Assembly: GCF_003072065.1 (NCBI RefSeq)
Contig: NZ_QCYG01000006.1
Coordinates: forward strand, 1 to 64,000
Direction of reading: 5' to 3'
Length of the DNA: 64,000 nucleotides
From: Thalassorhabdomicrobium marinisediminis
Lineage (GTDB): Bacteria; Pseudomonadota; Alphaproteobacteria; Rhodobacterales; Rhodobacteraceae
Part shown: positions 26,169-40,254 of the stretch, one piece after another
How positions within the stretch are numbered: position 1 is the first letter of the stretch
How the letters are laid out: each line of letters starts with the position of its first letter
Program-made: the position numbers and the translations under genes
The notes under the pieces: generated by a model
The model's input: the letters and a program-made list of their open reading frames with translations, nothing else
What the model was told of the DNA's origin: nothing
The model's database searches: none

Positions 26169-26328
26169 GGGGGCGCTCCTTGCAGGGACGTCAGGTAGCG
26201 CCGCGCGGTGCCGATGTAAGGGGCGGCGGTGGAAATAGATGCAAGGGACGGGCCGGAAAGAGATGGGACTCACTTGCTCCTGCCGGTATTTTGCCGGATA
26301 AGTCGGCAGGTTCTTGAAAGGTTTTGTC

Positions 26329-26640
26329 ATGCGCGCACGAATCTACAAACCCGCCCGCACCGCGATGTCGTCGGGCACCGCGAAGACCCGTTTGTGGGTG
26401 CTGGAATTCGCCCCCTCAGAAGGGCGCGAGATTGATCCGCTGATGGGCTGGACCTCGTCCGCGGACACCCAGACGCAGGTGCGGCTGACCTTCGACACCA
26501 AGGAAGAAGCGCTCGAATACGCCAAGGATAACGGCATCACCGCCGTCGTGCGCGACCCCAACGAGCGGCGACCCAACATCCGCATGGGCGGCTACGGCGA
26601 GAATTTCGCCACCGACCGCCGCGGCACCTGGACACACTGA
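26329..26640 (+). CDS. NDUFS4-type NADH dehydrogenase accessory subunit
   Basis: This 103-residue protein matches the ETC_C1_NDUFS4 family, an accessory subunit of complex I kept in alphaproteobacteria and mitochondria. Conserved pieces are ARIYKPART at the N terminus, the W-V-L-E-F strand, DPLMGWTSS near residue 36, [12 protein letters not shown] near 60 and [11 protein letters not shown] at the end. It sits beside the membrane and contributes to complex I assembly and stability. The start at 26329 matches the family. The transposon target duplication begins on the last base of its stop codon, so its native terminator has been displaced. Confidence 0.9.
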
Positions 26641-26644
26641 GCCT
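26640..26644. repeat. Left 5-bp target-site duplication of transposon 1
   Basis: AGCCT lies directly outside the terminal TGT at 26645 and is repeated at 32628-32632 directly outside the terminal ACA. A 5-bp duplication is what Tn7- and Tn5053/Tn402-type transposition makes. Confidence 0.92.
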
Positions 26645-26683
26645 TGTAAATCGGGGCAAAGTTGTCTCGGAATCGGGGTAAAG
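26645..26683. repeat. Left end of transposon 1: terminal repeat and second binding-like site
   Basis: TGTAAATCGGGGCAAAG (26645-26661) is the outer repeat, and AATCGGGGTAAAG (26671-26683) is a direct second copy of its core. The sequence to 26848, before brxL ends, has no gene; it includes ATCTATATGTAG at 26735-26746 and the inverted CCAGGG...CCCTGG near 26793, possibly ending brxL transcription. Confidence 0.88.
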
Positions 26684-26848
26684 ATCCCGCGCACTGAATT
26701 GTAATACAAGATGTGGTTATTGCTCGGCTATGGTATCTATATGTAGCTGGCGATAGATTTGATTACGTGATCGACCGCTGACGGGATGCCAGGGATATAA
26801 TCCCCCTGGAGTCCCATGCACCATGGGCTGCTCCCGACCGAACATGTT

Positions 26849-28921
26849 CTATTGCCTTACATACGTTACATAAAACCCTTTCAACATGCGATGTTCCTGT
26901 AGGCGATCGCCAAGGCTGAAACCGTCGCGGCGAATAGGGGGTTGGTAGATATCCAAGCCGCGATCGAGCACGATCTTCCAGCCCGTATCGGTTGAGATGT
27001 CCCGCGCGTGCGCGGTTCCGGTAGTATCAAGTGCCCAAGTAAAATCGACGCCGGTACCAGTACATGCTTCGGTGATACTCTCGAGAAGTTCACGCTGCCT
27101 TTGAACCTCTCCGTCATGCGGCCCCGTCACGAGGTGAATTGAAATCTGATCTTCGGGTTTCTTGCGCCGGACAATCATCTCAACGAATTCCATCATCGTT
27201 CTGATCTGATATGGTTTACGCACATAAGGATCAGTAATCACGATCCGGGTGGCGCCGTCCGTATAGGGGCCGAATAACTTGTCGAAACTGATGCCCTTAC
27301 GATTCTCCGCGTAGGTAAAGTGCCCGTCCTTGAGGGGTCGTGCGACCGAGTCCTGGGCTGGTTCCGACGCTCGGCGTTCGACGGTACTTTCGATTACATC
27401 ATCGGAGATCTGCGTTTTCTCATCCGAACGTTGCATCGAATTCGGTGTCGGTTTTTGGTTGTAGAACTGCGGAAACTCTTGCTCTTCGACGGTCTGAATG
27501 TACCGCTTCTCCCCGTCGGATCCGGAATAATAGAAATCAACCTCGGGATAGGTCGCATCGATCCTGAACAGCTGATCCTTGACCCGTTTCCGGCTTTCCA
27601 TCGCCAGTTGCAGCAGCTCCTCGACATCCTCGGCACTTTCGCCGCCGGCCGGGAAAATGACTTTCAGCATTCCGGACATGGTCTTGTAGATCGCATCGCG
27701 GTCACGGGTTGAGACTTTCTCGCTCACACGGAAATGTTGGTCGGGGCGGTTGGAGAAATCTTCCTGGCGCAGATGGCGCAGAATTTCAGCAAGGTAGTCG
27801 ACGATGAAGCCATACCCACTGGTGAACATTTCGCCGCGGATCACATCGATCTCCCAGCCGGGCAAATAGGCGTGCAGCCGGTCGATGAAGGCACTGTCGT
27901 GGAATTGCGGAGGGAGGGCTTCGAACAGGTCGCTGTTCTTCAGCATGTAGGGCACATTGTGATCTGTGTTGCCGACGAAAGCAAAGCTGGCCTCCGCCCC
28001 CATGGGGTTGACCCCGCGGGAGAAAGTCTTGTTGGCCATGTAGTTTTTCATAATGTCGACGAGCGCTTTATTCGCGGTCTTCTCGCGCCCGGCAAATTCA
28101 TCGAACGCCACAACATCCCAGTAGCCAACGAGGCCGATCCGTCCGTTGGAGTTGTTTACGAAGAGTTTCGGGATCGTCACCTCGCCCCCGGATATCAATT
28201 GTCCATGAGGCGAGAATTCAGAGTAGATGTGGGACTTGCCGGTTCCCTTGGGCCCCAGCTCGATGATGTTGTAGTTGCGTTCGACAAACGGGATCAGACG
28301 CATCAGTTGCAAGAGCTTGCTGCGACGCCCGAATGCTTCAGGATCAAACCCGATGGATTGCATGAGCAGATCAATCCATTCATCTTTGCTGAACTGACCG
28401 CGGGCCTCTTTATAGCCGTCATAATCCACACGTGCGATCTGGATCGGCTTGATGGTTTCCAACACCCAGGGAGAGGTACGGGCGTCTTCAGCAAACTCAT
28501 ACTGCACATCGGCGATACACCAAACGCTCGTGACCAGTAGTTTGGGATGGGCCTTAACTGTACCGCTGTCGACAGCGACCTTCTTAATGCCCAGATTATC
28601 AAAGACCGCCTCATAGCTATCGGTCTTTTCGTTCAACGATACGCTGATCTGGTCGATGACCTTGTAGCGCCCTTTTTCCTTAATCGTGGACTGGATCAAG
28701 CCGGCTTCGTTGCGATGGACATAGTGCTTACGCAGGATGTCCTTGACCGTTTCGATGCCACTTTGGATCGAAGCCTCGTCATCGGTCGCGCAGTATTGGC
28801 CCAGCAGGTATTCCAACACATAGGTTGGTACGATGGCATTGCCTTTGACGGCTTTCACCAGATCCTTGCGGACCACATAGCCTGCGAAGTGTTCGTTGAT
28901 CTTGTCATCGAGAGAGCTCAT
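26849..28921 (-). CDS. brxL: BREX system ATPase BrxL with MITD1-like C terminus
   Basis: BrxL is the AAA+ component encoded last in type 1 BREX phage-defence operons. This 690-residue copy looks full length. The N-terminal region (1-200) is followed by Walker A GPKGTGKS (223-230), Walker B VVAFDEFAG (about 271-279) and a sensor-like VGNTDHN. Instead of an obvious Lon Ser-Lys protease domain, residues about 555-690 (ITDPYVRKPYQIR, ISIHLVTGPHDGE, DTGWKIVLDRGLDIYQPP) resemble the phospholipase-D-like C-terminal domain of MITD1. It starts 9 bp after the pglZ fragment. The original operon promoter has been deleted, so expression is doubtful. Confidence 0.88.
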   Translation of the reverse strand: MSSLDDKINEHFAGYVVRKDLVKAVKGNAIVPTYVLEYLLGQYCATDDEASIQSGIETVKDILRKHYVHRNEAGLIQSTIKEKGRYKVIDQISVSLNEKTDSYEAVFDNLGIKKVAVDSGTVKAHPKLLVTSVWCIADVQYEFAEDARTSPWVLETIKPIQIARVDYDGYKEARGQFSKDEWIDLLMQSIGFDPEAFGRRSKLLQLMRLIPFVERNYNIIELGPKGTGKSHIYSEFSPHGQLISGGEVTIPKLFVNNSNGRIGLVGYWDVVAFDEFAGREKTANKALVDIMKNYMANKTFSRGVNPMGAEASFAFVGNTDHNVPYMLKNSDLFEALPPQFHDSAFIDRLHAYLPGWEIDVIRGEMFTSGYGFIVDYLAEILRHLRQEDFSNRPDQHFRVSEKVSTRDRDAIYKTMSGMLKVIFPAGGESAEDVEELLQLAMESRKRVKDQLFRIDATYPEVDFYYSGSDGEKRYIQTVEEQEFPQFYNQKPTPNSMQRSDEKTQISDDVIESTVERRASEPAQDSVARPLKDGHFTYAENRKGISFDKLFGPYTDGATRIVITDPYVRKPYQIRTMMEFVEMIVRRKKPEDQISIHLVTGPHDGEVQRQRELLESITEACTGTGVDFTWALDTTGTAHARDISTDTGWKIVLDRGLDIYQPPIRRDGFSLGDRLQEHRMLKGFYVTYVRQ

Positions 28922-28930
28922 GGCCGGTCC

Positions 28931-30556
28931 TTAAAAATCGAAATCTGTGGTGATGCCGCGGCGCAACTGGAAGCGGTGGCTGGCATAATCTTCGTAGTGG
29001 CTGGTCTTGCCGATCCGCTCGCGCAGTTTCAAGAAGACATCTTGGTCGTTGAACTGGTCCGCTTCGCGGGACAGGAGAAACTTGAGTGGCAGCTCTCGTT
29101 CTCGGGCATTCTCCGAGGCGAAGTCAAACGTGAGATTGTGTTCATCGGAGATAAGCGTGCCGTCATTGGCGTATATGCCTGCCAACAGATCACGCTGCTG
29201 CTGTTTCTCGGAAACGGCCTGGGCCTGGTAGAGCGTGACTGCTGTTTGGCCCGATGAGATCAAGCTTCGACCGGGGACGATAATCTGGACATCGACCTTG
29301 CCCACATCTGCTTCCCGCCGTTTGCCGACCTTTAATACCGGGATGACAACTTCCTGCAGCGATGCGCCCCCATGGACAAATCGGCTGCCCGCGCCTTTGA
29401 CGCGCATACGGTTGATCGAGTTGGGGATCAGCACGTCGAGGTCACCCGACAGACCCAGTTCTGCCGACGAAAATTTCTTCATTCCAGAGGTTTCATTCAG
29501 TCCGCGACCTATAACGAAGCGCCGGTTCTTAAACAGGATTTCCGAACCCGTGGGGTCAGCAACAGAGAAATCGGACTGGTCCAACGGGCGGTGCTGATAG
29601 AGAAACCCGTGATCTGCGGTGATCAAAATATTCGAGAAATTCGCGGTCGTCAGCTTGCGAACAAGCTTTGTCAGATCCTCGATGGCATCTTCAGCGGCCT
29701 CGGTTAAGCGATCCTCGGTTGCCAGCTTGTCGCCGATGATGTCGATGCGGTTGTGATAGAGGTACAGGATATCATGATCGCGGAAGAGCGCTTTGCCCTC
29801 TTCCGCCTTCATGTTCATGAAGTCTTCTGCCTTCATGGCTTTCGCTGTATCGCCGGCGCGGCCTTTGCCGAGGATTTTTTGGCGGTTGACGGTGCCCTGA
29901 GTCGGCTCACCGAAAGACGACACAGCCGCATCGCCGGACAGGGTCAACGCCTCGTTCGGCAGCAGGGCGGCCATGCCAAGCTGGGTGTAGCTGGGGAGCG
30001 TCGAGACCATCGGCTTCAGTTGCGCATCGTAGCGAGACAACTTGCGAATCTCGCGCTGGCATTCCTCGGCCACCTCAAAGCGCAGCGCATCCGAGACAAT
30101 CACGACAACTTTTTGGTCGCGGCGCCGGTACTTGGCCGCATGATCGCGGTAGAAGTCTGTCTGTTTGGCATACCTGGGCACTGACCAGTCGGACAGCTTC
30201 GCGATCTGGTCCTGCCAGGCGTCATTGACCGTTAAAAGAAAGTTGGTGGTGTAGCGGTTCTCAACGCTTTCGAACAATGATCCCAGCAGGGAAGCCTGTC
30301 CGCTCTTCTGCATGTGGTAGATGAACTTACGATAGAGCTGGTCGATTTTGAACCAGCTGGACACGTACCGCTTCACCCCCTCGGCGGGGGAGGTCATAGA
30401 GAGCGTTGCCTCGGCCAGGGCCTGCTGGAATTCCGTGGCGTAGCCAATCGCTTTATAGATATCGCGGTAGATTGGATACCAATGGCTTTGGCGGCGCTCT
30501 CTGACAGTCTTCAACACTTCGGCGGAGGTCATCGTCTGGCTTGACATGGCTGCCAC
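28931..30556 (-). pseudogene. pglZ: 5'-truncated pglZ (BREX alkaline-phosphatase-like protein)
   Basis: The 541 codons match only the C-terminal part of BREX PglZ, whose full length is around 850 residues. The alkaline-phosphatase-type core is kept: VVIVSDALRFEVAEE near residue 153 (metal-binding Asp156), LPSYTQLGMAALLP near 185 and ITADHGFLYQH near 310. The frame is open only back to 30590, where it meets an in-frame stop, and apparent homology fades at the tniB fragment. The nominal GTG start at 30556 is therefore probably not original. PglZ precedes brxL here as in intact BREX loci, which supports the assignment. Confidence 0.82.
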
Positions 30557-30948
30557 CAGCTTTCGCGCTCCTGTCAGAGCCCACGGGCGAAACTATCCGC
30601 CGGTTCAACCAATTCGCGCTGTCGCGGATCTGCCCCGGTAGCAAGGGGGCGCACCTCTTCCGCCGGAATTTCTCAAAATCAGCCAAAATCCTCGAGCTGA
30701 AAGTCGAGGACGAGGAAAATTTTGCTGACCGCATTCTCTTCGCGAAACATGGCCAAGTCGGAAAATCGGTCGAACTGGCCAAGGAAATTCTGCGCGGCGC
30801 CATCTCAAGGAGGCGCGAGGAGATTACGCTCGAATTTGCCGAGCGGGTCTTCAGAAAAACGAACTCAACCATGGGCATGACGCCGTTTGAAGCTGCAGGT
30901 TGGTCTGCTGTGGAGGCTGAGCTGCTTTCGATCGGGTGGGCTCAATGA
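30541..30948 (+). pseudogene. tniB: 5'-truncated tniB (transposition AAA+ ATPase)
   Basis: About 130 codons resemble the C-terminal helical part of TniB/TnsC-type ATPases (FADRILFAKHGQVGKSVELAKE, then ITLEFAERVF and MTPFEAAGW). The Walker A and B regions, which lie in the N-terminal two thirds of a usual 300-residue TniB, are missing. The nominal TTG start lies inside the head-to-head pglZ fragment. Its stop overlaps the tniQ start (ATGA), the usual tniB-tniQ coupling. It cannot be an active ATPase. Confidence 0.72.
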
Positions 30949-32417
30949 TGTCCCTTTGGCCTTCCCTTCCATTCGACCCCGAGGAAACACTCTTGTCCTA
31001 CACAGACCGTTTGGCCGGAATGCACACAGGGCGCGGCATGGCACGATTGCTCCGCGACCTGGGCGTCAATACCGAGCATTTTGCCTCTGGGCGCCCCGGG
31101 GCGGTATCAGCGTTCGCTCAGGCGGTTGGACTGGCCCTCGATGAAGCACAGCGCGCTGCCATCCGCGTGCTCCAGCGGGCGGCCTCTTTCCGAGGCGAAC
31201 ATTTGTCGAAATCTTTCCTGAGTCCACGTGCAGACCGTTACTGCCCGAGCTGTCTCGCGGAAGACGGCGCGATTCCTGATCGCCGATTTCGACTGATCTG
31301 GGGGGTTCGCCATGTGTCTCGCTGTGACCTGCACTCAACATGGCTCGTTGAGGCGCCCTACAAGAATGAGACCAACCTGCGAGAAGCGCTGGGAGGCGAA
31401 CCGATGGCTTCGCCAAGTACGGCGACGCCAGAACCGCCAGAATACCTTAAATGGCTGCGAGGCCGTGTTACCGGCGGTTCAAGTTCCGAAGGCTCTTGGA
31501 TGGCAGGCCAGACACTGGAGCATGTTCTTGCCGCATCTGAGATGCTTGGCGGCATCCTGCAGCATGGCCACAAGGTTGCTCTCACGAGGTTGACCGCCGC
31601 CCAAACCGAAGAGGCCACAGATATTGGGTTCTCGATCTATTCCGAGGGCCCAGGCGCAATCGAGGAGGCGCTGGATACAATCCGCAAATCGTCGTCGGCA
31701 ACCGCGGTCCAGGCGGGACCGTTGGCCTACTACGGCAAGCTCTTTGACTGGTTGGACCGCCGCAGCAACGCGGTCGATCCCGGCCCAATTCGCGACATTC
31801 TGCGCGACCATATTGTAAAGCATTCCGCGGTGGAGCCAGGCACGAAAGTCTTGGGAGCTGAGATCACCGAACGGCGATATCATACCCTCTATAGTCTTTC
31901 GAAAGCGGTTGAAATTGAGCGTCCGCGCCTATCCCGCCTTCTCAAGAAACTTGGCGAAATCCCGCAAGAGGCGACCGAGGTCGAAAGTGGGAAAATGGTG
32001 TTTGAGGTGGCCAGGATCGTCCCGCTTATCGACGCCTTTTCAACCGCTATCCCACTGTCCGAAGTCCCCGTGTATCTGGGCGCAAGCAAAAGTCAGGTAA
32101 AACGGCTCTACCGCCATGGAACCTTGCAGCCTTTGATCCCGACAACTGGACGCGGTTCCGTCCGTAGAGTGGTGTTCGCCCGACGCCATTTAGATGACCT
32201 ATTGGCGCGGGTTGCAGAACTCCCAGAGTTGGGAGCGCAAAATGACGATTTCCACCCGATCTCCTATGCGTGCCAGCGCGGTGCCGGGCATTTCGAGGAA
32301 ATTTTCGCTGAGGCTCTTGAAGGCCGAATTATGGCATTCCGCCACCCGGGTAGGACTGGCATCGACGCCATTCAGGTTGATGTTAAATCTTTGATGCAGG
32401 TGAATGCATCCTCCTGA
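30945..32417 (+). CDS. tniQ: TniQ family transposition protein
   Basis: TniQ/TnsD proteins select targets and link the transposase ATPase to DNA. The 490-residue protein opens with the family signature PEETLLSYTDRLAG (about residues 12-25) and a zinc ribbon C-x2-C-x23-C-x2-H (Cys100, Cys103, Cys127, His130). The C-terminal half contains helix-turn-helix-like stretches (VPVYLGASKSQVKRLYRHGTL near 375). It looks intact and has its own terminator, but without tniA and a whole tniB it has no partners here. It reads toward the right end of the element. Confidence 0.87.
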   Translation: MMSLWPSLPFDPEETLLSYTDRLAGMHTGRGMARLLRDLGVNTEHFASGRPGAVSAFAQAVGLALDEAQRAAIRVLQRAASFRGEHLSKSFLSPRADRYCPSCLAEDGAIPDRRFRLIWGVRHVSRCDLHSTWLVEAPYKNETNLREALGGEPMASPSTATPEPPEYLKWLRGRVTGGSSSEGSWMAGQTLEHVLAASEMLGGILQHGHKVALTRLTAAQTEEATDIGFSIYSEGPGAIEEALDTIRKSSSATAVQAGPLAYYGKLFDWLDRRSNAVDPGPIRDILRDHIVKHSAVEPGTKVLGAEITERRYHTLYSLSKAVEIERPRLSRLLKKLGEIPQEATEVESGKMVFEVARIVPLIDAFSTAIPLSEVPVYLGASKSQVKRLYRHGTLQPLIPTTGRGSVRRVVFARRHLDDLLARVAELPELGAQNDDFHPISYACQRGAGHFEEIFAEALEGRIMAFRHPGRTGIDAIQVDVKSLMQVNASS

Positions 32418-32440
32418 CGACAATCGAAAATCTATAGACC

Positions 32441-32470
32441 AAGAAGCTCGCTTTTGGCGGGCTTTTTTCT
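32441..32470 (+). terminator. tniQ terminator
   Basis: AAGCTCGC (32444-32451) pairs with GCGGGCTT, loop TTTTG, followed by a run of six Ts. It lies 27 bp after the tniQ stop. Confidence 0.82.
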
Positions 32471-32513
32471 TGGGGCATCTGTGTTCGCGAGATCCTTGAT
32501 AAGATTCCGCGCA

Positions 32514-32627
32514 ATCTTGCCCCGATTATCGCGGGATCTTTGCTCCGATTTCATAGTGAGGGCTTTTAAGCCATTGTTTTATAAAGTTTATTTAGGCTTT
32601 TCCGAGACAACTTTGCCCCGATTTACA
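32514..32627. repeat. Right end of transposon 1: three binding-like repeats
   Basis: Three copies of one core are visible: CTTGCCCCGATT (32516-32527), CTTTGCTCCGATTT (32538-32551) and the terminal CTTTGCCCCGATTTACA (32611-32627). They are inverted relative to the two copies at the left end. An asymmetric number of transposase sites at the two ends is typical of Tn7-like elements. Confidence 0.87.
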
Positions 32628-32632
32628 AGCCT
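32628..32632. repeat. Right 5-bp target-site duplication of transposon 1
   Basis: AGCCT follows the terminal ACA and matches 26640-26644 exactly. One base (G, 32633) separates it from the left end of the next element. Confidence 0.92.
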
Positions 32633-32633
32633 G

Positions 32634-34334
32634 TGTAAATCGGGGCAAAGTTGCCTCGGAATCGGGGTAAGGACTGAGCGATCCGAACACTCGCGCAAGA
32701 TATCGTGCGTATTCGCATACAAAATCTATATGTAGGCGGCGGTGAATGCGTAGTGCCTCCTTCCCGGCGATGGCGCCGACAGTCGAAGGCTACCACGGTT
32801 TGGCGTTCTTGCGCGGCGGAATGACCGCATGGGCGCCTCGGTCGGAAAGGGCGTCATGGCATTTGCGCGTCACCGACGTTGCTTCCGTCCACTGGCCTCA
32901 CGGACCAGCGGCATTCGCCGATGAACTGTTGACGGCACGGATCTTCAACGTCTGTGTCATCGACACCCCCTTTGTCTGAATACACTCAGGCGCCCAATTT
33001 CTGCCAGTCTTCTACGCAAATCGATCGTCTATCTGGGATACGACCTTCGGGAAAACTTCCTCGTGCCGGGATAGGATAGTTCGGTAAATATTCGCATAGG
33101 TCTTATTTTTCAGCAACTCTTGTGCGCGCATTCTATGCCAATTAACCGACGCTTTGTGGAGGTCAGCTAGTTCAGTGTCCTTTAAGAGCTCAGCCACCGC
33201 TCCTCGCAGATCAGGATTTCCGGCTTTGGAAATTTCGTCTTCAACTTCATTGCAATTGTAAAGATCCCAATACCTCATGGTGTCCTCTAAGTCCGGCTCG
33301 GTGGGTTTGATCCCCTTGATCGGGTTGGCGCTTCCGCGGTCCTTTTGCAACAGGAAGCCTCTAAAGGAGCGGATCGTATAATGGGCGATGTCAACCAAAC
33401 CGAAAGCGGTCATATTGGGAGGAAGCCTTTTGAACGGGGTTGCAATTTTCTCAGACGGCAACTCGGTCCCGTCTCCATTTACCCAGTTCACCCGGCAGAG
33501 CTCTGGCTCTGCAAGCTCAGGCGAATTGTTTGCGAATTTCGTCCAAGGGAAACCGCCCCGCGCGAGATACTTCACCGGCGCATGACTTTTATTGTTGTCT
33601 TTGCGCCAACGGAACGTTTCAGTCACCAATCCATCGTCTGGCAATATGCCGTCGATACCGCTACACCCAAAGGTACGCAATGACATGGAAATTGCATCGG
33701 CGTCTGGCACCGCATTCACAAGATCCTCCAACCTGCCATTTCCAACCTTGACCCGGATGAATTCATCTGCATCGATATGTGTAACCCAGTCGGATCGCCG
33801 CAGGCGTGGCAATTCATTAACGTAGCGCACCAGTTCAATATGATGACGGGCATTCTGTTTGCGGACCGACGGATTGATCATATGGCGAACAAGGCCGAGT
33901 TCATCCAATCGCTCGAGAATAACATCCGTGAAATCCGAACAATGATTCGAGAACACTAGCATGTCGTTGATCCCGATCATGCGATTGTGGGCGACCCATT
34001 CTAAAATATAGGGTCCCTCATTCTTCATCGGCGTAATTGACGTGACGCGCATTCTGTCTTTCTCCTTTGTCTGGGTTTCGTTTTTGGAAGGATAACCCCC
34101 CCTTATTCCTAATAGGCCGCTGGTATAACTGAGTAGCCCTTCTTGGTCCCACGGCGAGCATAATGCTGTCAACGAGCATGGAGATATGACGCAAGTCAAT
34201 GATGGTCGTCGTCAGGCGACGATTTGTATCTGCTTGGTCCTGTATGGGAACTCAATCTCTTAAATGACCTTCGTCAGATGGTTCGGCCCTAGGTATATTT
34301 GAGCTCTTCCGAGACAGCTTTGCCTTGATTTACA
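32634..34334. mobile_element. Second, related mini-element carrying a glycosyltransferase-like gene
   Basis: The left end repeats that of transposon 1: TGTAAATCGGGGCAAAG (32634-32650), AATCGGGGTAAGG (32660-32672), and ATCTATATGTAG at 32724-32735, exactly 90 bp inside as in transposon 1. The right end (about 34307-34334), read inward, starts TGTAAATCAAGGCAAAGC and has diverged. Flanking bases (GCCTG left, CTGGG right) do not form a clean duplication, so it is older, rearranged, or a hybrid. It holds no transposition gene. From 32736 to 33011 no credible gene is present. Confidence 0.72.
33012..34052 (-). CDS. Glycosyltransferase family 2-like protein (cargo of mini-element)
   Basis: The 346-residue protein begins RVTSITPMKNEGPYILEWVAHN, the start of the Glyco_tranf_2_4/GT92-like fold, and has the metal-binding motif THIDADEF near residue 96. 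A C-terminal helical region with HRMRAQELL follows. Such enzymes transfer sugars to surface polysaccharides or act on glycans of unknown type. AAGGAGA is well placed before the ATG at 34052; the longer open frame upstream lacks similarity. Its lower GC than the flanks fits transfer with the mobile element. Confidence 0.75.
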   Translation of the reverse strand: MRVTSITPMKNEGPYILEWVAHNRMIGINDMLVFSNHCSDFTDVILERLDELGLVRHMINPSVRKQNARHHIELVRYVNELPRLRRSDWVTHIDADEFIRVKVGNGRLEDLVNAVPDADAISMSLRTFGCSGIDGILPDDGLVTETFRWRKDNNKSHAPVKYLARGGFPWTKFANNSPELAEPELCRVNWVNGDGTELPSEKIATPFKRLPPNMTAFGLVDIAHYTIRSFRGFLLQKDRGSANPIKGIKPTEPDLEDTMRYWDLYNCNEVEDEISKAGNPDLRGAVAELLKDTELADLHKASVNWHRMRAQELLKNKTYANIYRTILSRHEEVFPKVVSQIDDRFA

Positions 34335-34405: not shown

Positions 34406-35593
34406 ATGAGTGATCGTTTCATTGCCGACATGGAGGCCATGCTGTCGCAGATCGACGCGGACGGGCTTATGAAGCGCGAGCGTTTGATCACCTCGCCCCA
34501 GCGGGCCGAGATCACCGTGGGCACGCGTGAGGTGATCAACCTGTGCGCCAACAATTATCTGGGGCTGGCCGATCACCCCGACCTCAAGAAGGCCACGCAG
34601 GACGCGATGGACGACAAGGGGTTCGGCATGGCCTCGGTCCGGTTCATTTGCGGCACGCAGGACCTGCACCGGGAGCTTGAGCAAAAGCTCGCGTCGTTTC
34701 TGGGCAAGGATGACTCGATCCTGTTTGCCGCCTGCTTCGACGCCAATGGTGGCCTGTTCGAGCCGCTTTGGGGCCCCGAGGATGCGGTGGTGTCCGACGC
34801 TCTGAACCATGCGTCGATCATCGACGGCATCCGCCTGTGCAAGGCGCGGCGCTTCCGCTACGCCAACAACGACATGGCCGACCTTGAAGCGAAACTGAAA
34901 GAGGCGCGGGACGGCGGGGCGCGGCATGTGATGATCGCCACCGATGGTGTGTTCTCGATGGATGGCTATCTGGCGAACCTGCCCGAGATTACGCGGTTGG
35001 CGAAAACCTATGACGCCTTGGTGATGGTGGACGACTGCCATGCCACCGGCCTTATGGGGCCGAACGGCGCGGGCACCCCTGACCACTTCGGCGTCGATGT
35101 GGACATCCTCACCGGCACGCTGGGCAAGGCCTTGGGTGGCGCGCTGGGCGGCTATATCGCAGGGCCGCAGGCGGTGATCGACGTGTTGCGCCAGCGTGCG
35201 CGGCCCTATCTGTTCTCGAACGCGCTGCCGCCCATGCTAGTGGCCGCCGGGCTGGAGGCGATCCGGCTGGTGGAAGAGGGGGCCGACCTGCGCGCGCAAC
35301 TCAAGGAGAACGCGACCTATTGGCGCGCCGGACTTGAGGCGCTGGGCTTCGACGTGCTGGCGGGCGAGCATCCCATCGTGCCGGTCATGCTGGGCGAAGC
35401 GCAACTGGCGCAAGACATGGCCGCGGGCCTGTTCGAGGAAGGCGTCTATGTCACCGGGTTCTTCTTTCCCGTGGTGCCCAAGGGGCAGGCGCGCATCCGC
35501 ACGCAGATGAATGCGGCCCTGATGCGCGAGCAGTTGGACCGCGCGCTTGAGGCCTTCGGCAAGGTCGGGCGCGCGTTGGGCGTGATCTCATGA
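34406..35593 (+). CDS. kbl: Glycine C-acetyltransferase (2-amino-3-ketobutyrate CoA ligase)
   Basis: Kbl cleaves 2-amino-3-ketobutyrate with CoA into glycine and acetyl-CoA, the second step of threonine degradation. The 395-residue alpha-oxoamine-synthase fold shows [10 protein letters not shown] near residue 50, [13 protein letters not shown] near 206 and the PLP-lysine motif [12 protein letters not shown] near 242. AGGAGGT precedes the ATG at 34406. Its stop overlaps the tdh start by four bases, so the two are translated together. Confidence 0.96.
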
Positions 35594-36636
35594 GCTTGCC
35601 CAACACGATGAAGGCGCTTGAGAAGTCCAAACCCGAAGAGGGGTTGTGGATGGTGCAGGCGCCGGTGCCCGAGATCGGCCCCGATGATGTTCTGATCCGC
35701 ATCAACGCCACGGGCATTTGCGGCACCGACATCCACATCTGGAACTGGGACGACTGGGCGCAGGCCACGGTGCCGGTGCCGATGATCACCGGACACGAAT
35801 TCGCCGGTGAGATTGTCGAGCTCGGGCGCAACGTCACCGGCTTGCAGCTTGGCCAGCGCTGCTCGGGCGAGGGGCACGTGGTCGGCACAGACAGCCGCCA
35901 GAGCCGGTCGGGGAAGTTCCATCTGGACCCGGGCACGCGCGGCATTGGCGTGAACGTGCAAGGCGCCTTTGCCGGATACCTGCGACTGCCCGCGTTCAAC
36001 GTGGTGCCGCTGCCCGATGACATTCCTGACGAGATTGGCGCGATCCTCGACCCGCTTGGCAATGCCGTGCACACCGCGCTGAGCTATGACCTGCTGGGCG
36101 AGGATGTGCTGATCACCGGCGCGGGGCCGATCGGGATCATGGCCGCCGCCGTGGCGCGCCATGCGGGCGCGCGGCATGTGGTGATCACCGACATCAACCC
36201 CGACCGCCTTGCGCTAGCCCGGGTGGTCTGTCCCAACGTGCGCACGGTGGATGTCACCGCCGAAGACCTGCACGACGTCTCGCACGAGTTGGGGATGAAA
36301 CAGGGCTTCGACGTCGGGCTTGAGATGTCCGGCAGTCAGCAGGCGCTCGATCAAATGGTGGAAAACTTGATCATGGGCGGCAAGATCGCGCTTCTGGGCA
36401 TTCCGCCGGGCAAGTCGCCGGTGGACTGGTCGCGGATCGTGTTCAAGGCGATCACCATCAAGGGCGTTTACGGGCGCGAGATGTTCGAGACCTGGTACAA
36501 GATGATCGCCATGCTGCAGAACGGGCTGGACGTGAGCCGCGTGATCACGCACCGCCTGCCGGTGGATCAATTCCGCGAGGGGTTTGCCGCGATGAAATCC
36601 GGGCAGTCCGGCAAGGTCGTCCTGCGCTGGACCTGA
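35590..36636 (+). CDS. tdh: L-threonine 3-dehydrogenase
   Basis: Tdh oxidises threonine to 2-amino-3-ketobutyrate with NAD+, feeding Kbl. This zinc-dependent medium-chain dehydrogenase has catalytic-zinc ligands in ATGICGTD (Cys) and GHEFAGEI (His-Glu), the NAD-binding [10 protein letters not shown] near residue 178 and the 348-residue length of the family. The usual four-cysteine structural-zinc lobe is altered: the segment around residues 90-112 has one Cys in QRCSGEGH and then a Ser/Arg-rich stretch. It ends 9 bp from the convergent lrp gene. Confidence 0.95.
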
Positions 36637-36645
36637 CGCGCGGCG

Positions 36646-37113
36646 CTAAAGCCGGCCAAGGGGCAGCGGGCGCTGCTCCTCGATCGCTTCCATCGCGAAA
36701 TAGGAGGTCACGGTGTCGAGCTCGATGTTCTCGATCAGCCGTTTATAGACGTTGTCATAGCCCGCCATGTTGTTGACAACGATCTTCAGCAGATAGTCAT
36801 ATTCGCCACCGATGCGGAAAAAGTCGATCACTTCGGGGATCGCCGAGACATGGGCGCGGAACTTGCGCAGCCAGTCGGTCGAGTGGTGCCGCGTTTTGAT
36901 CAGCGCGAAGATGATGAAGCTGCCGCCGAGTTTCTCGCGGTCGATGACCACCGTGCGGTTGCGGATCACGCCGCGCGCCTCCAGCGCCTTGAGCCGCCGC
37001 CAGCAGGCGTTTTGCGACAGGCCGACCTGTTCGGCCAGCGCCCGCTGAGACTGGCCCGCGTCGCGCTGCAGCTCTTCCAGAATGCGGCAATCGAAATGAT
37101 CTAGGTTCTCCAT
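36646..37113 (-). CDS. Lrp/AsnC-family transcriptional regulator
   Basis: The 155-residue protein has an N-terminal winged helix (LDHFDCRILEELQRDAGQSQRALAEQVGLSQNACWRR, residues 4-40) and a C-terminal RAM ligand-binding domain ending with the typical IGGEYDYLLKIVV and S-Y-F-A-M-E segments. Such regulators sense amino acids. It is divergent from the class-V aminotransferase gene, with a 106-bp shared promoter region containing the small palindrome TCATATGA near 37127. Control of that neighbour and perhaps of tdh-kbl is inferred. Confidence 0.9.
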   Translation of the reverse strand: MENLDHFDCRILEELQRDAGQSQRALAEQVGLSQNACWRRLKALEARGVIRNRTVVIDREKLGGSFIIFALIKTRHHSTDWLRKFRAHVSAIPEVIDFFRIGGEYDYLLKIVVNNMAGYDNVYKRLIENIELDTVTSYFAMEAIEEQRPLPLGRL

Positions 37114-37219
37114 AAGATTGGATCATATGACCCAAAACAGGATATGCAACGGTGGTTTTATGTGAAGATTTTTCCGTCTGACGTGTCAGAATGCAGAGGT
37201 TCACAACACCGGAGCCGAC

Positions 37220-38680
37220 ATGACCCCCCTTGAGACCTTCAAAGCATCCCTGTCCCGCGCCGACGTGCACGATCATATCCGCAGCGGGCTGATCGGGGAG
37301 GACGTGAAGATCGACGGGCCGTTCGGGCCGAAGCCGCTGGTCTATGCGGATTACGTCGCCTCCGGGCGGGCTTTGACGCAGGTTGAGGATTTCATCCGCG
37401 ATCAGGTGCTGCCCTACTACGCGAACACCCACACCCAAGCGTCGTTCTGCGGCGAATACATGACCAAGCTGCGAGAAGCCGCGCGGGCGGAGATCGCCCG
37501 TTTGACCAACGCTGGGGTGGGCACCAGCGTGGTCTTCACCGGTGCGGGCTCGACGGCGGGGATCAACCGGATTGCCGGTCTGCTCGACCTCGCGCCCCTG
37601 GTCGCGGCCGGGGAGCGTGTGGTGGTTCTGACCGGCCCTTACGAGCATCATTCGAACATCCTGCCGTGGCGCGAAACCGGGGCCGAGGTGATCGAGATCG
37701 CCGAAGCGGTGGGCGGCGGCGTTGACCTCTCTGACCTGGACCGCGCGCTGCGGGACGCGCAGGGCGCGGCGCGGATCGTCGGCACCTTCTCGGCGGCGTC
37801 CAACGTGACAGGTCTGCGCACCGACACGGACGCGGTGACGCGGCTGCTCAAGGCGCACGGGGCGCTCGCGGTTTGGGACTACGGCTGCGCAGGCCCCTAT
37901 TGCGAGATGGACATGCGGCCCGGAACCGACGCGGAAAAGGACGCCATCGTCTGCTCGATCCACAAGTTCCCCGGCGGACCGGGCGCCAGCGGCGTCGCCG
38001 TGATCCGCGACGCCATTGCCACCCGCGCGGTGCCCACGCTGCCCGGCGGCGGCACGGTCAGCTTCGTGTCGCCCTGGGGGCATGTCTATTCCGACCGGCT
38101 TGCCGCGCGGGAAGAGGGGGGCACGCCGAACGTGATCGGCGATATTCGCGCCGCCCTCGCCATGCTGGTGAAAGAGGCTTTGGGCCAGCATTGGCTGACC
38201 GCACGCCAGACCGAGCTGCGCGAACGCGCGCTTGCGGTCTGGTCCAGGAACGACCGAATCGAGCTTCTGGGCCAGCGCGGGGCAGATGCGCTGCCGATCT
38301 TTTCGTTCCGGTTGACCGACGGGACCGGCGCGCCCGTGCACCACCAGTTCTTCACCCGCCTGCTCAGCGACCTGACCGGGGTTCAGGCCCGCGGCGGCTG
38401 CGCTTGCGCGGGGCCTTACGGCCACCGTCTGCTGGGTCTGGACAAGACGGATTCCGACGCCACGATCGCAGCACTGGAACGGGGCGAGGAAACCGCCAAA
38501 CCGGGTTGGGTGCGCCTGAACCTGTCGGCGTTGATGAGCGATGAGAAGGTCGATTTCGTCATCCGTGCGGTGGACGATCTGGCGCGTCGGGCGTCGGACT
38601 ATGCCGATCGCTATCAAGTCGATCCGCAAACCGCGCGGTTCAAGGCGCGCACCGAAGCGGCGACCCCTCTGGCGTCCTAG
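37220..38680 (+). CDS. Aminotransferase class V-fold PLP enzyme
   Basis: The 486-residue PLP enzyme belongs to the class V/cysteine desulfurase-like superfamily: VYADYVASGRALTQVEDFI near residue 40, FTGAGSTAGINR near 105, GPYEHHSNILPWRE near 140, the PLP-lysine in CSIHKFPGGPGASG near 252 and RGGCACAGPYGH near 390. The last resembles the cysteine-bearing loop of desulfurases, but this longer family is uncharacterised and may act on another amino acid. The divergent Lrp regulator suggests amino-acid-responsive expression. Confidence 0.82.
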   Translation: MTPLETFKASLSRADVHDHIRSGLIGEDVKIDGPFGPKPLVYADYVASGRALTQVEDFIRDQVLPYYANTHTQASFCGEYMTKLREAARAEIARLTNAGVGTSVVFTGAGSTAGINRIAGLLDLAPLVAAGERVVVLTGPYEHHSNILPWRETGAEVIEIAEAVGGGVDLSDLDRALRDAQGAARIVGTFSAASNVTGLRTDTDAVTRLLKAHGALAVWDYGCAGPYCEMDMRPGTDAEKDAIVCSIHKFPGGPGASGVAVIRDAIATRAVPTLPGGGTVSFVSPWGHVYSDRLAAREEGGTPNVIGDIRAALAMLVKEALGQHWLTARQTELRERALAVWSRNDRIELLGQRGADALPIFSFRLTDGTGAPVHHQFFTRLLSDLTGVQARGGCACAGPYGHRLLGLDKTDSDATIAALERGEETAKPGWVRLNLSALMSDEKVDFVIRAVDDLARRASDYADRYQVDPQTARFKARTEAATPLAS

Positions 38681-38774
38681 CGCCCGCAAACCCCAAGCCC
38701 GGGCACAACACGCGTGGATCGGCGAAACCGCCGCTTGAATTCCCCGTGCGTTGCCCATTAAAAGAAGCGCGTGC

Positions 38775-40254
<1,480 letters not shown>

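What the first reader, a model, noticed from the sequence alone, without database searches (positions are those of the whole stretch)
26640..32632. Transposon with exact inverted ends and 5-bp AGCCT duplication carrying BREX genes
AGCCT flanks both ends, and the 5'-TGT...ACA-3' termini are perfect inverted repeats of 28 bp inside the duplication. There are two inner binding-like repeats at the left and three at the right, with TniB/TniQ-type genes inside. This defines the boundaries to the base and shows that a BREX locus travelled as cargo of a Tn7/Tn5053-type element. Direct reading gives the ends and duplication; the family assignment is from TniQ and the 5-bp duplication.
Basis: partly seen in the sequence, partly recalled or inferred. 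Interest (0 to 1): 0.72.

Follow-up and report, generated by a model that had tools for sequence, protein, structure and literature searches.

The report
Deleted Tn7-like transposon beside NDUFS4 gene
This is the remnant of a Tn7-like jumping element that carried phage-defence genes and, like its relatives in related bacteria, inserts at one fixed place: right after the gene for respiratory protein NDUFS4.

Summary
The interpretation needs correction. The element is an internally deleted relic of a Tn7-like transposon, not a Tn5053 type. It keeps BrxL, a PglZ lacking its first ~290 residues, the C-terminal part of TnsC, and an open 493-aa TniQ. TnsA, TnsB and the other BREX genes are absent; pglZ joins tnsC directly at 30565. 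A second, older element (32634-34334, glycosyltransferase cargo) starts 1 bp behind it. The new result is the target: in relatives the same left end starts 2-7 bp after the NDUFS4 stop codon. The junction occurs in 40 of 390 genomes of the order, own included (control 1); 30 of 30 fetched junctions are at that stop codon. All 15 TniQ rows of the close clade come from genomes whose NDUFS4 carries such an end. Complete relatives encode TnsA-TnsB-TnsC-TniQ; 9 of 16 elements read on both sides have perfect 5-bp duplications; cargo differs. This is a site-specific Tn7-like family homing to NDUFS4, a site I did not find in the papers searched. That TniQ reads NDUFS4 is inferred. BREX as Tn7 cargo is known.

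The parts
26314..26640 (+). NDUFS4 (ETC complex I subunit) gene; its 3' end is the attachment site
   Evidence: PF04800 E 6.5e-34; left ends at this stop codon in relatives
26640..26644 (.). left copy of the 5-bp target duplication AGCCT; its A is the last base of the TGA stop
26645..26672 (+). left terminal inverted repeat, perfect match to 32600-32627; second binding-like site at 26671-26686
26849..28921 (-). BrxL, 690 aa, full length
   Evidence: PADLOC BrxL 1167.7 bits, residues 1-690; TIGR02688 615.7 bits
28931..30565 (-). PglZ (BREX-1 type A) without its N-terminal ~287 residues; ORF 28931-30556
   Evidence: profile from position 315 of 855; TIGR02687; homology begins at residue 288 of an intact 831-aa relative
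30565..30948 (+). C-terminal fragment of TnsC/TniB, from residue 198 of 325; joined directly to pglZ at 30565
30936..32417 (+). TniQ, 493 aa, open reading frame
   Evidence: PF06527 E 1e-14; 63% identical to TniQ of the complete G260 element
32512..32550 (-). two inner right-end binding-like sites (32512-32527, 32535-32550)
32600..32627 (-). right terminal inverted repeat
32628..32632 (.). right copy of the duplication AGCCT
32634..32661 (+). left end of a second, older element (27 of 28 as the first)
33012..34199 (-). glycosyltransferase cargo of the older element
   Evidence: PF13704 E 4.8e-18
34307..34334 (-). right end of the older element; flank CTGGG does not match the left flank GCCTG

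Best explanation
26645-32627 is an internally deleted, now non-autonomous derivative of a Tn7-like transposon family whose attachment site is the 3' end of NDUFS4. In the complete form, TniQ (acting as TnsD does) marks the NDUFS4 end, TnsC is recruited, and TnsA/TnsB cut and paste the element 2-7 bp beyond the stop codon. This duplicates 5 bp, keeps the gene intact and puts the same end next to NDUFS4. The ancestor of this copy carried a type I BREX locus; one deletion, estimated at ten or more kb, joined pglZ codon ~288 to tnsC codon 198 and removed the other BREX genes, tnsA, tnsB and most of tnsC. A previous element of the same family was already in the site and was displaced outward. Shown: ends, duplication, gene content, the pglZ-tnsC join, site use in relatives, complete relatives. 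Inferred: that TniQ reads NDUFS4, the ancestral full BREX, a single deletion and its size, and that neither BREX nor transposition works here.
For: Ends and duplication. Complete relative G260, 17.2 kb, CGTCG on both sides, left end 6 bp after the NDUFS4 stop, then tnsA-tnsB-tnsC-tniQ. Four TnsB relatives share invariant D317, D416 and E452. Site use: the 20-bp end used as sole query hits 22 places in 19 of 294 other family genomes; 13 are left ends at NDUFS4, 4 are partner or tandem ends of such elements, 5 are elsewhere, lack the second site and look like chance. Junction pattern in 40 of 390 order genomes, own included, control 1; all 30 fetched are at the NDUFS4 stop, 10 were not fetched. 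Of 17 same-genus NDUFS4 loci, 4 carry this end (own included), 2 a variant end, 11 none. Perfect 5-bp duplications in 9 of 16 elements with both flanks read. The 11 TniQ rows labelled NDUFS4-anchored fall in one 15-row clade, 100/100; the other 4 rows come from genomes with such an end at NDUFS4. Join at 30565.
Against: No binding or transposition data. The TnsA assignment is weak by profile (PF08722 E 0.0064, below cut-off; the C4 relative had no hit) and leans on position and conserved residues. 7 of the 16 elements do not have a perfect duplication: G349 and G308 agree at 4 of 5 bases; G188, G215, G076, L008 and the older window element do not match. Six of the nine perfect ones pair flanks on different contigs or rest on a tandem comparison. 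11 of 17 same-genus sites are free of these ends. No intact BREX-carrying member was found at NDUFS4. Model of TniQ poor overall (pLDDT 52).
Confidence: 0.88

Rival explanations
1. A Tn5053/Tn402-type element (no tnsA, resolvase, hunting res sites) that landed here by chance.
For: 5-bp duplication, TGT...ACA ends, TniB/TniQ names; a Tn5053-like TniA-TniB-TniQ set exists elsewhere in this genome, C35.
Against: Complete relatives have a TnsA-like gene and a TnsB scoring 88 bits against I-F3 CAST TnsB; repeated insertion at one chromosomal site; no resolvase among the window-element ORFs scanned.
Confidence: 0.04
2. The deleted copy still moves as a satellite: ends plus TniQ are kept, and TnsA/TnsB/TnsC come in trans from complete relatives.
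For: Ends and duplication are perfect although the transposase is gone; G349 and G076 also keep an open TniQ with tnsA/tnsB missing or truncated.
Against: These copies were found by TniQ or by ends, so retention of TniQ is partly a selection effect; other copies have lost or broken TniQ (G188, G308, G300, L008, L011, Thioclava GXIMD4215); no helper with matching ends in this genome; whatever promoter lay upstream of tnsA is lost.
Confidence: 0.12
3. BrxL plus truncated PglZ is a selected, working mini defence module.
For: Both frames are open; BrxL is full length.
Against: PglZ has lost its N-terminal third with its own start; BrxA, BrxB, BrxC and PglX are absent from the element; a fuller BREX set stands on contig C35.
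Confidence: 0.06
4. The NDUFS4-tRNA-Arg interval is a general integration hotspot and the ends are a coincidence of integrase-driven islands.
For: In five same-genus genomes the interval is 47-124 bp with tRNA-Arg(tct) next, and others carry insertions without these ends (G145, G297, G299).
Against: The same end in the same orientation at the stop codon in 26 of 139 genera, with 5-bp duplications; in several other genomes no tRNA-Arg lay in the stretches fetched.
Confidence: 0.03

Closest known systems
Type I-F3 CAST (Tn6677, PseCAST/Tn7016) and their non-CRISPR relatives
   Same: TnsB of the complete relative G260 is nearest to theirs among solved structures (PseCAST 88.8 bits, Tn6677 87.3 bits); winged helix 370-429 of the window TniQ superposes on the last domain of I-F3 TniQ (7u5e, Z 7.0, 60 residues, rmsd 2.4)
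   Different: No Cascade genes among the window ORFs or the ten G260 proteins scanned, out of 18 ORFs listed there; TniQ is ~90-110 residues longer than the I-F3 chains listed and the model adds a further MerR-like winged helix at 438-493; homes to NDUFS4
Tn7 (TnsABC + TnsD, glmS attachment site)
   Same: 5-bp duplication (recalled for Tn7), several binding sites per end, controlled orientation, insertion beside the 3' end of a conserved gene (Tn7 facts from passages of PMC11406308)
   Different: Target NDUFS4 instead of glmS; a single TniQ; no TnsE recognised, though not searched for
Tn7-like transposons carrying BREX (Benler et al. 2021, PMC8649781, passages seen)
   Same: BREX listed as Tn7-like cargo, 40 with BrxC
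   Different: Here BREX is a remnant without BrxC, in a deleted element
Tn5053/Tn402 family
   Same: TniB/TniQ names, 5-bp duplication (recalled)
   Different: Complete relatives have a tnsA-like gene; chromosomal homing site

Membership tests
Tn7-like transposon | TGT...ACA ends with multiple transposase-binding sites | tested here: met
Tn7-like transposon | 5-bp target duplication | tested here: met
   window copy; family: perfect in 9 of 16 elements with both flanks read
Tn7-like transposon | TnsA and TnsB transposase in the element | tested here: not met
   Absent in the window copy; present in complete relatives G260, G006, G205, G135, Thioclava 'Guangxiensis'. The window copy is therefore filed as a deletion derivative, not as a complete member
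Tn7-like transposon | TniQ/TnsD-family target selector | tested here: met
   PF06527 E 1e-14
Tn7-like transposon | Fixed orientation at a dedicated attachment site | tested here: met
Tn7-like transposon | Target selector binds the attachment site | not testable with these tools
   needs a binding or transposition assay
Tn5053/Tn402 family | No tnsA; resolvase and res site | tested here: not met
   tnsA-like gene in relatives (weak by profile). Of ten G260 proteins scanned none hit a serine resolvase; one 210-aa cargo ORF hit PF00589, the tyrosine recombinase family
BREX type I | BrxA, BrxB, BrxC, PglX, PglZ, BrxL all present | tested here: not met
   only BrxL and a truncated PglZ
Type I-F3 CAST | Cascade (Cas5/8, Cas7, Cas6) and CRISPR array | tested here: not met
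   the window element's main ORFs are BrxL, PglZ, TnsC fragment and TniQ; no CRISPR-like array among the direct repeats

The most novel reading that the evidence does not exclude
A CRISPR-free sister lineage of the I-F3 CAST transposons in Rhodobacterales uses one TniQ, lengthened by an extra C-terminal winged helix, to read the end of NDUFS4; this would show how a TniQ becomes, or once was, a direct DNA-reading target selector before or instead of recruiting Cascade. It builds serial tandem defence islands at a respiratory gene.
Probability: 0.3. Interest if true: 0.6.

Novelty: new variant of a known kind. Interest (0 to 1): 0.45.

Why it matters
It adds a homing site, the 3' end of NDUFS4, to those named for Tn7-like elements in the passages seen (glmS, parE, comM, tRNA genes), and gives a simple handle (NDUFS4 stop, 2-7 bp, TGTAAATC) for finding, bounding and comparing cargo islands, several with defence genes, in Rhodobacterales. 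The lineage is close to I-F3 CASTs but no CRISPR genes were seen in the copies scanned, so it is a natural comparison for how TniQ-based targeting works. Tandem elements at one site bear on target immunity. The window copy itself is a relic and unremarkable alone.

Tried and rejected
Exact empty site for the window: none of the other 16 same-genus NDUFS4 loci has the same right flank; kbl-tdh lies elsewhere in G145, G306 and G308. tRNA-Arg as the target: five empty sites have it 47-124 bp downstream, but in several occupied sites no tRNA-Arg lay in the stretch fetched. Trans-helper in this genome: the 20-bp end, up to 3 mismatches, occurs only at the four window places; TniQ/TniB sets on C4 and C35 are distant (TnsB 29% and 25%). 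Intact BREX-bearing member at NDUFS4: BrxL (E up to 1e-60) was found in 21 of 394 family genomes, own included; of the five BREX stretches of 20 kb examined (L153, L155, L156, L157, L159) none shows these ends or TniQ; the others were not examined. Profile of four TniQ against PDB sequences: no hit. TniQ model: N-terminal two thirds unusable (pLDDT 52); Foldseek found nothing with E below 0.001; the VIA-align Z of 5-7 is middling. Inverted-repeat search for the C4 element ends: nothing convincing. A combined alignment of 50 of 74 cargo ORFs was not used further. The tree left out L179 of the loci by oversight. The junction pattern allowed 1-6 bases, so it misses G349 (7 bases); 40 of 390 is a lower count. 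Literature: 'Tn7-like' + 'NDUFS4' 0 papers; 'ETC complex I subunit' + 'transposon' 0; 'Tn7' + 'NADH dehydrogenase' + 'TniQ' 1 and 'Tn7-like' + 'Rhodobacter' + 'TnsD' 1, listings only; listings for other term sets; passages of PMC8649781, PMC10293859 and PMC11406308 name glmS, tRNA genes, parE and comM, not NDUFS4. Supplements could not be read and most subscription papers are not held, so absence from print is not shown.
Full report
OBSERVATION. The two AGCCT copies (26640-26644, 32628-32632) and the perfect 28-bp inverted ends (26645-26672, 32600-32627) are there. The terminal 16-mer has seven matches with up to three mismatches in the window, 0.44 expected. Two sites lie at the left end and three at the right, terminal ones included.

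CONTENT. BrxL is complete (1167.7 bits). PglZ starts at position ~315 of the 855-residue profile. Against an intact 831-aa PglZ its homology begins at residue 288, at window base 30565; TnsC homology begins at residue 198, also at base 30565, on the other strand. The two broken 5' ends face each other, which is what one internal deletion between a leftward BREX operon and a rightward tns operon would leave. TniQ (493 aa) is open. No tnsA or tnsB is present. So the element should not be able to move by itself, and the BREX system is incomplete; a fuller BREX set is on contig C35 of the same genome.

A SECOND ELEMENT. One base beyond the right AGCCT another left end begins (32634; 27 of 28 bases the same), and a right end follows at 34334, with a glycosyltransferase between. 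Reading from NDUFS4: TG-AGCCT-[element 1]-AGCCT-G-[element 2]. Element 2 would have used GCCTG, one base further on; its right flank CTGGG does not match, so its two ends may not belong together. Similar right-end/left-end junctions occur in Antarcticimicrobium (L010), G215, G205 and, with a degenerate right end, L008, and in Thioclava. New elements thus seem to enter between NDUFS4 and older ones.

THE TARGET. The 20-bp end was searched in 295 genomes of the family without any target sequence: 20 genomes had a match, the control (pattern read backwards) 1. Outside this genome there are 22 places in 19 genomes: 13 are left ends just after the NDUFS4 stop, 4 are right or tandem ends of such elements, and 5 lack the second binding site and are probably chance. 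Of 17 same-genus genomes in which the gene was found, 4 carry this end at NDUFS4 (own included), 2 a variant end, 11 none. A pattern for the junction (NDUFS4 3' end, 1-6 bases, TGTRARTC) hits 40 of 390 genomes of the order (own included) in 26 of 139 genera, control 1. The 30 fetched were checked: all lie at the NDUFS4 stop, distances 2-6 bp; the other 10 were not fetched. In G349, missed by that pattern, the distance is 7 bp. Even ends that differ in sequence (TGTAAATCGGGATCAAGTTGC, TGTAAAACTAACC) use this site.

COMPLETE RELATIVES. G260 carries a 17.2-kb element with CGTCG on both sides, cargo, then 227-, 731-, 325- and 490-aa proteins. The 731-aa one matches type I-F3 TnsB (88.8 and 87.3 bits), and four relatives share D317, D416 and E452, spaced like a DDE transposase (spacing recalled). 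The 227-aa one matches TnsA only weakly (PF08722, E 0.0064, below cut-off), but the five relatives aligned keep E70, D90 and K106, in keeping with a TnsA-type nuclease (recalled). G006, G205, G135 and Thioclava 'Guangxiensis' have the same set. Duplications are perfect in nine of 16 elements with both flanks read: window, G260, G006, G135, G350, G205, Celeribacter, Antarcticimicrobium, Thioclava 'Guangxiensis'; 4 of 5 bases agree in G349 and G308; there is no match in G188, G215, G076, L008 and window element 2. In G006, G350, G205, Celeribacter and Antarcticimicrobium the two flanks are on different contigs.

A NAMED PAIR. Thioclava GXIMD2076 and 'Guangxiensis' p2 are 98.6-99.1% alike around NDUFS4. 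The second has an extra ~61 kb, with GAGGG on both sides, between NDUFS4 and the DUF6880 gene that follows it in the first. Because the new and old left ends and the first cargo gene are alike, a tandem duplication cannot be wholly excluded. In GXIMD4216 and GXIMD4215 p2 the annotated 'ETC complex I subunit' is followed 3 bp after its stop by this end, with different cargo.

TNIQ. In a tree of 36 TniQ rows the 11 labelled as NDUFS4-anchored fall in a 15-row clade with support 100/100 (L179 left out). The other four rows had short contigs; their genomes also carry such an end at the NDUFS4 stop, and the right-end flank matches in three (GAGGC, GGCTT, AGCGT), not in the fourth (L008). The remaining 21 rows (26-32% identical to the window) include this genome's own C4 element, which is not beside its NDUFS4; targets of the others were not determined. 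The TniQ model is poor in its first two thirds; the winged helix 370-429 resembles the last domain of I-F3 TniQ (Z 7.0) and 438-493 resembles MerR-type DNA-binding domains (Z about 5). Such Z values are middling, so the DNA-reading role is inferred.

CARGO. Ten of 74 cargo ORFs listed were scanned with PADLOC: on the contigs holding the two ends in G006 are MkoC of Mokosh (1239 bits) and a UvrD-type helicase; G135 has type I restriction and modification subunits; three of the ten had no hit. BREX as cargo of Tn7-like elements is in print (40 transposons with BrxC in PMC8649781, passages).

VERDICT. The ends are as described; the element is a deletion derivative of a Tn7-like family homing to NDUFS4, lying in tandem before an older relative. 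Known kind, with an attachment site that I did not find described.

Noticed in passing
window 34406-38852: kbl, tdh, an Lrp-type regulator and an aminotransferase-like gene lie between the tandem elements and a tRNA-Arg(tct); in G145, G306 and G308 kbl-tdh is elsewhere, and in five same-genus genomes NDUFS4 is 47-124 bp from tRNA-Arg. The names of the regulator and aminotransferase-like gene are by eye, not from a profile call.
   Followed up: partly
G000:C35:62000-81900 (L153) and C35:53-56 kb (L059): A second, fuller BREX set (BrxL 707 aa, PglZ 833 aa, plus 1159- and 1098-aa ORFs) about 15 kb from a Tn5053-like TniA-TniB-TniQ set in the same genome.
   Followed up: partly
G000:C4 (L058:5751-11735): Another tnsA-like, tnsB, tnsC, tniQ (619 aa) set in this genome, of a different TniQ clade; target unknown.
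   Followed up: partly
L008:8901-10013: In a Roseobacter MAG an independent deletion seems to have fused TnsA residues 1-161 in frame to TnsC 115-324, removing tnsB.
   Followed up: no
L238:13751-15013: In Thioclava GXIMD4215 a deletion seems to join part of TnsB to the end of TnsC; a type I-E CRISPR-Cas locus follows the element remnant.
   Followed up: no
L158: In G311 (same genus) a glycosyltransferase 41% identical to the window's 33012-34199 lies between NDUFS4 and tRNA-Arg without visible ends.
   Followed up: no
G135:C11, about 21.7-78.9 kb: A ~57-kb element at NDUFS4 with type I R-M genes, CACGG on both sides; its TniQ is split over two matches in different frames.
   Followed up: partly
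G000:C35:104014-104235: A second, partial NDUFS4-like match (PF04800, 80.7 bits) in this genome, without the end motif after it.
   Followed up: no
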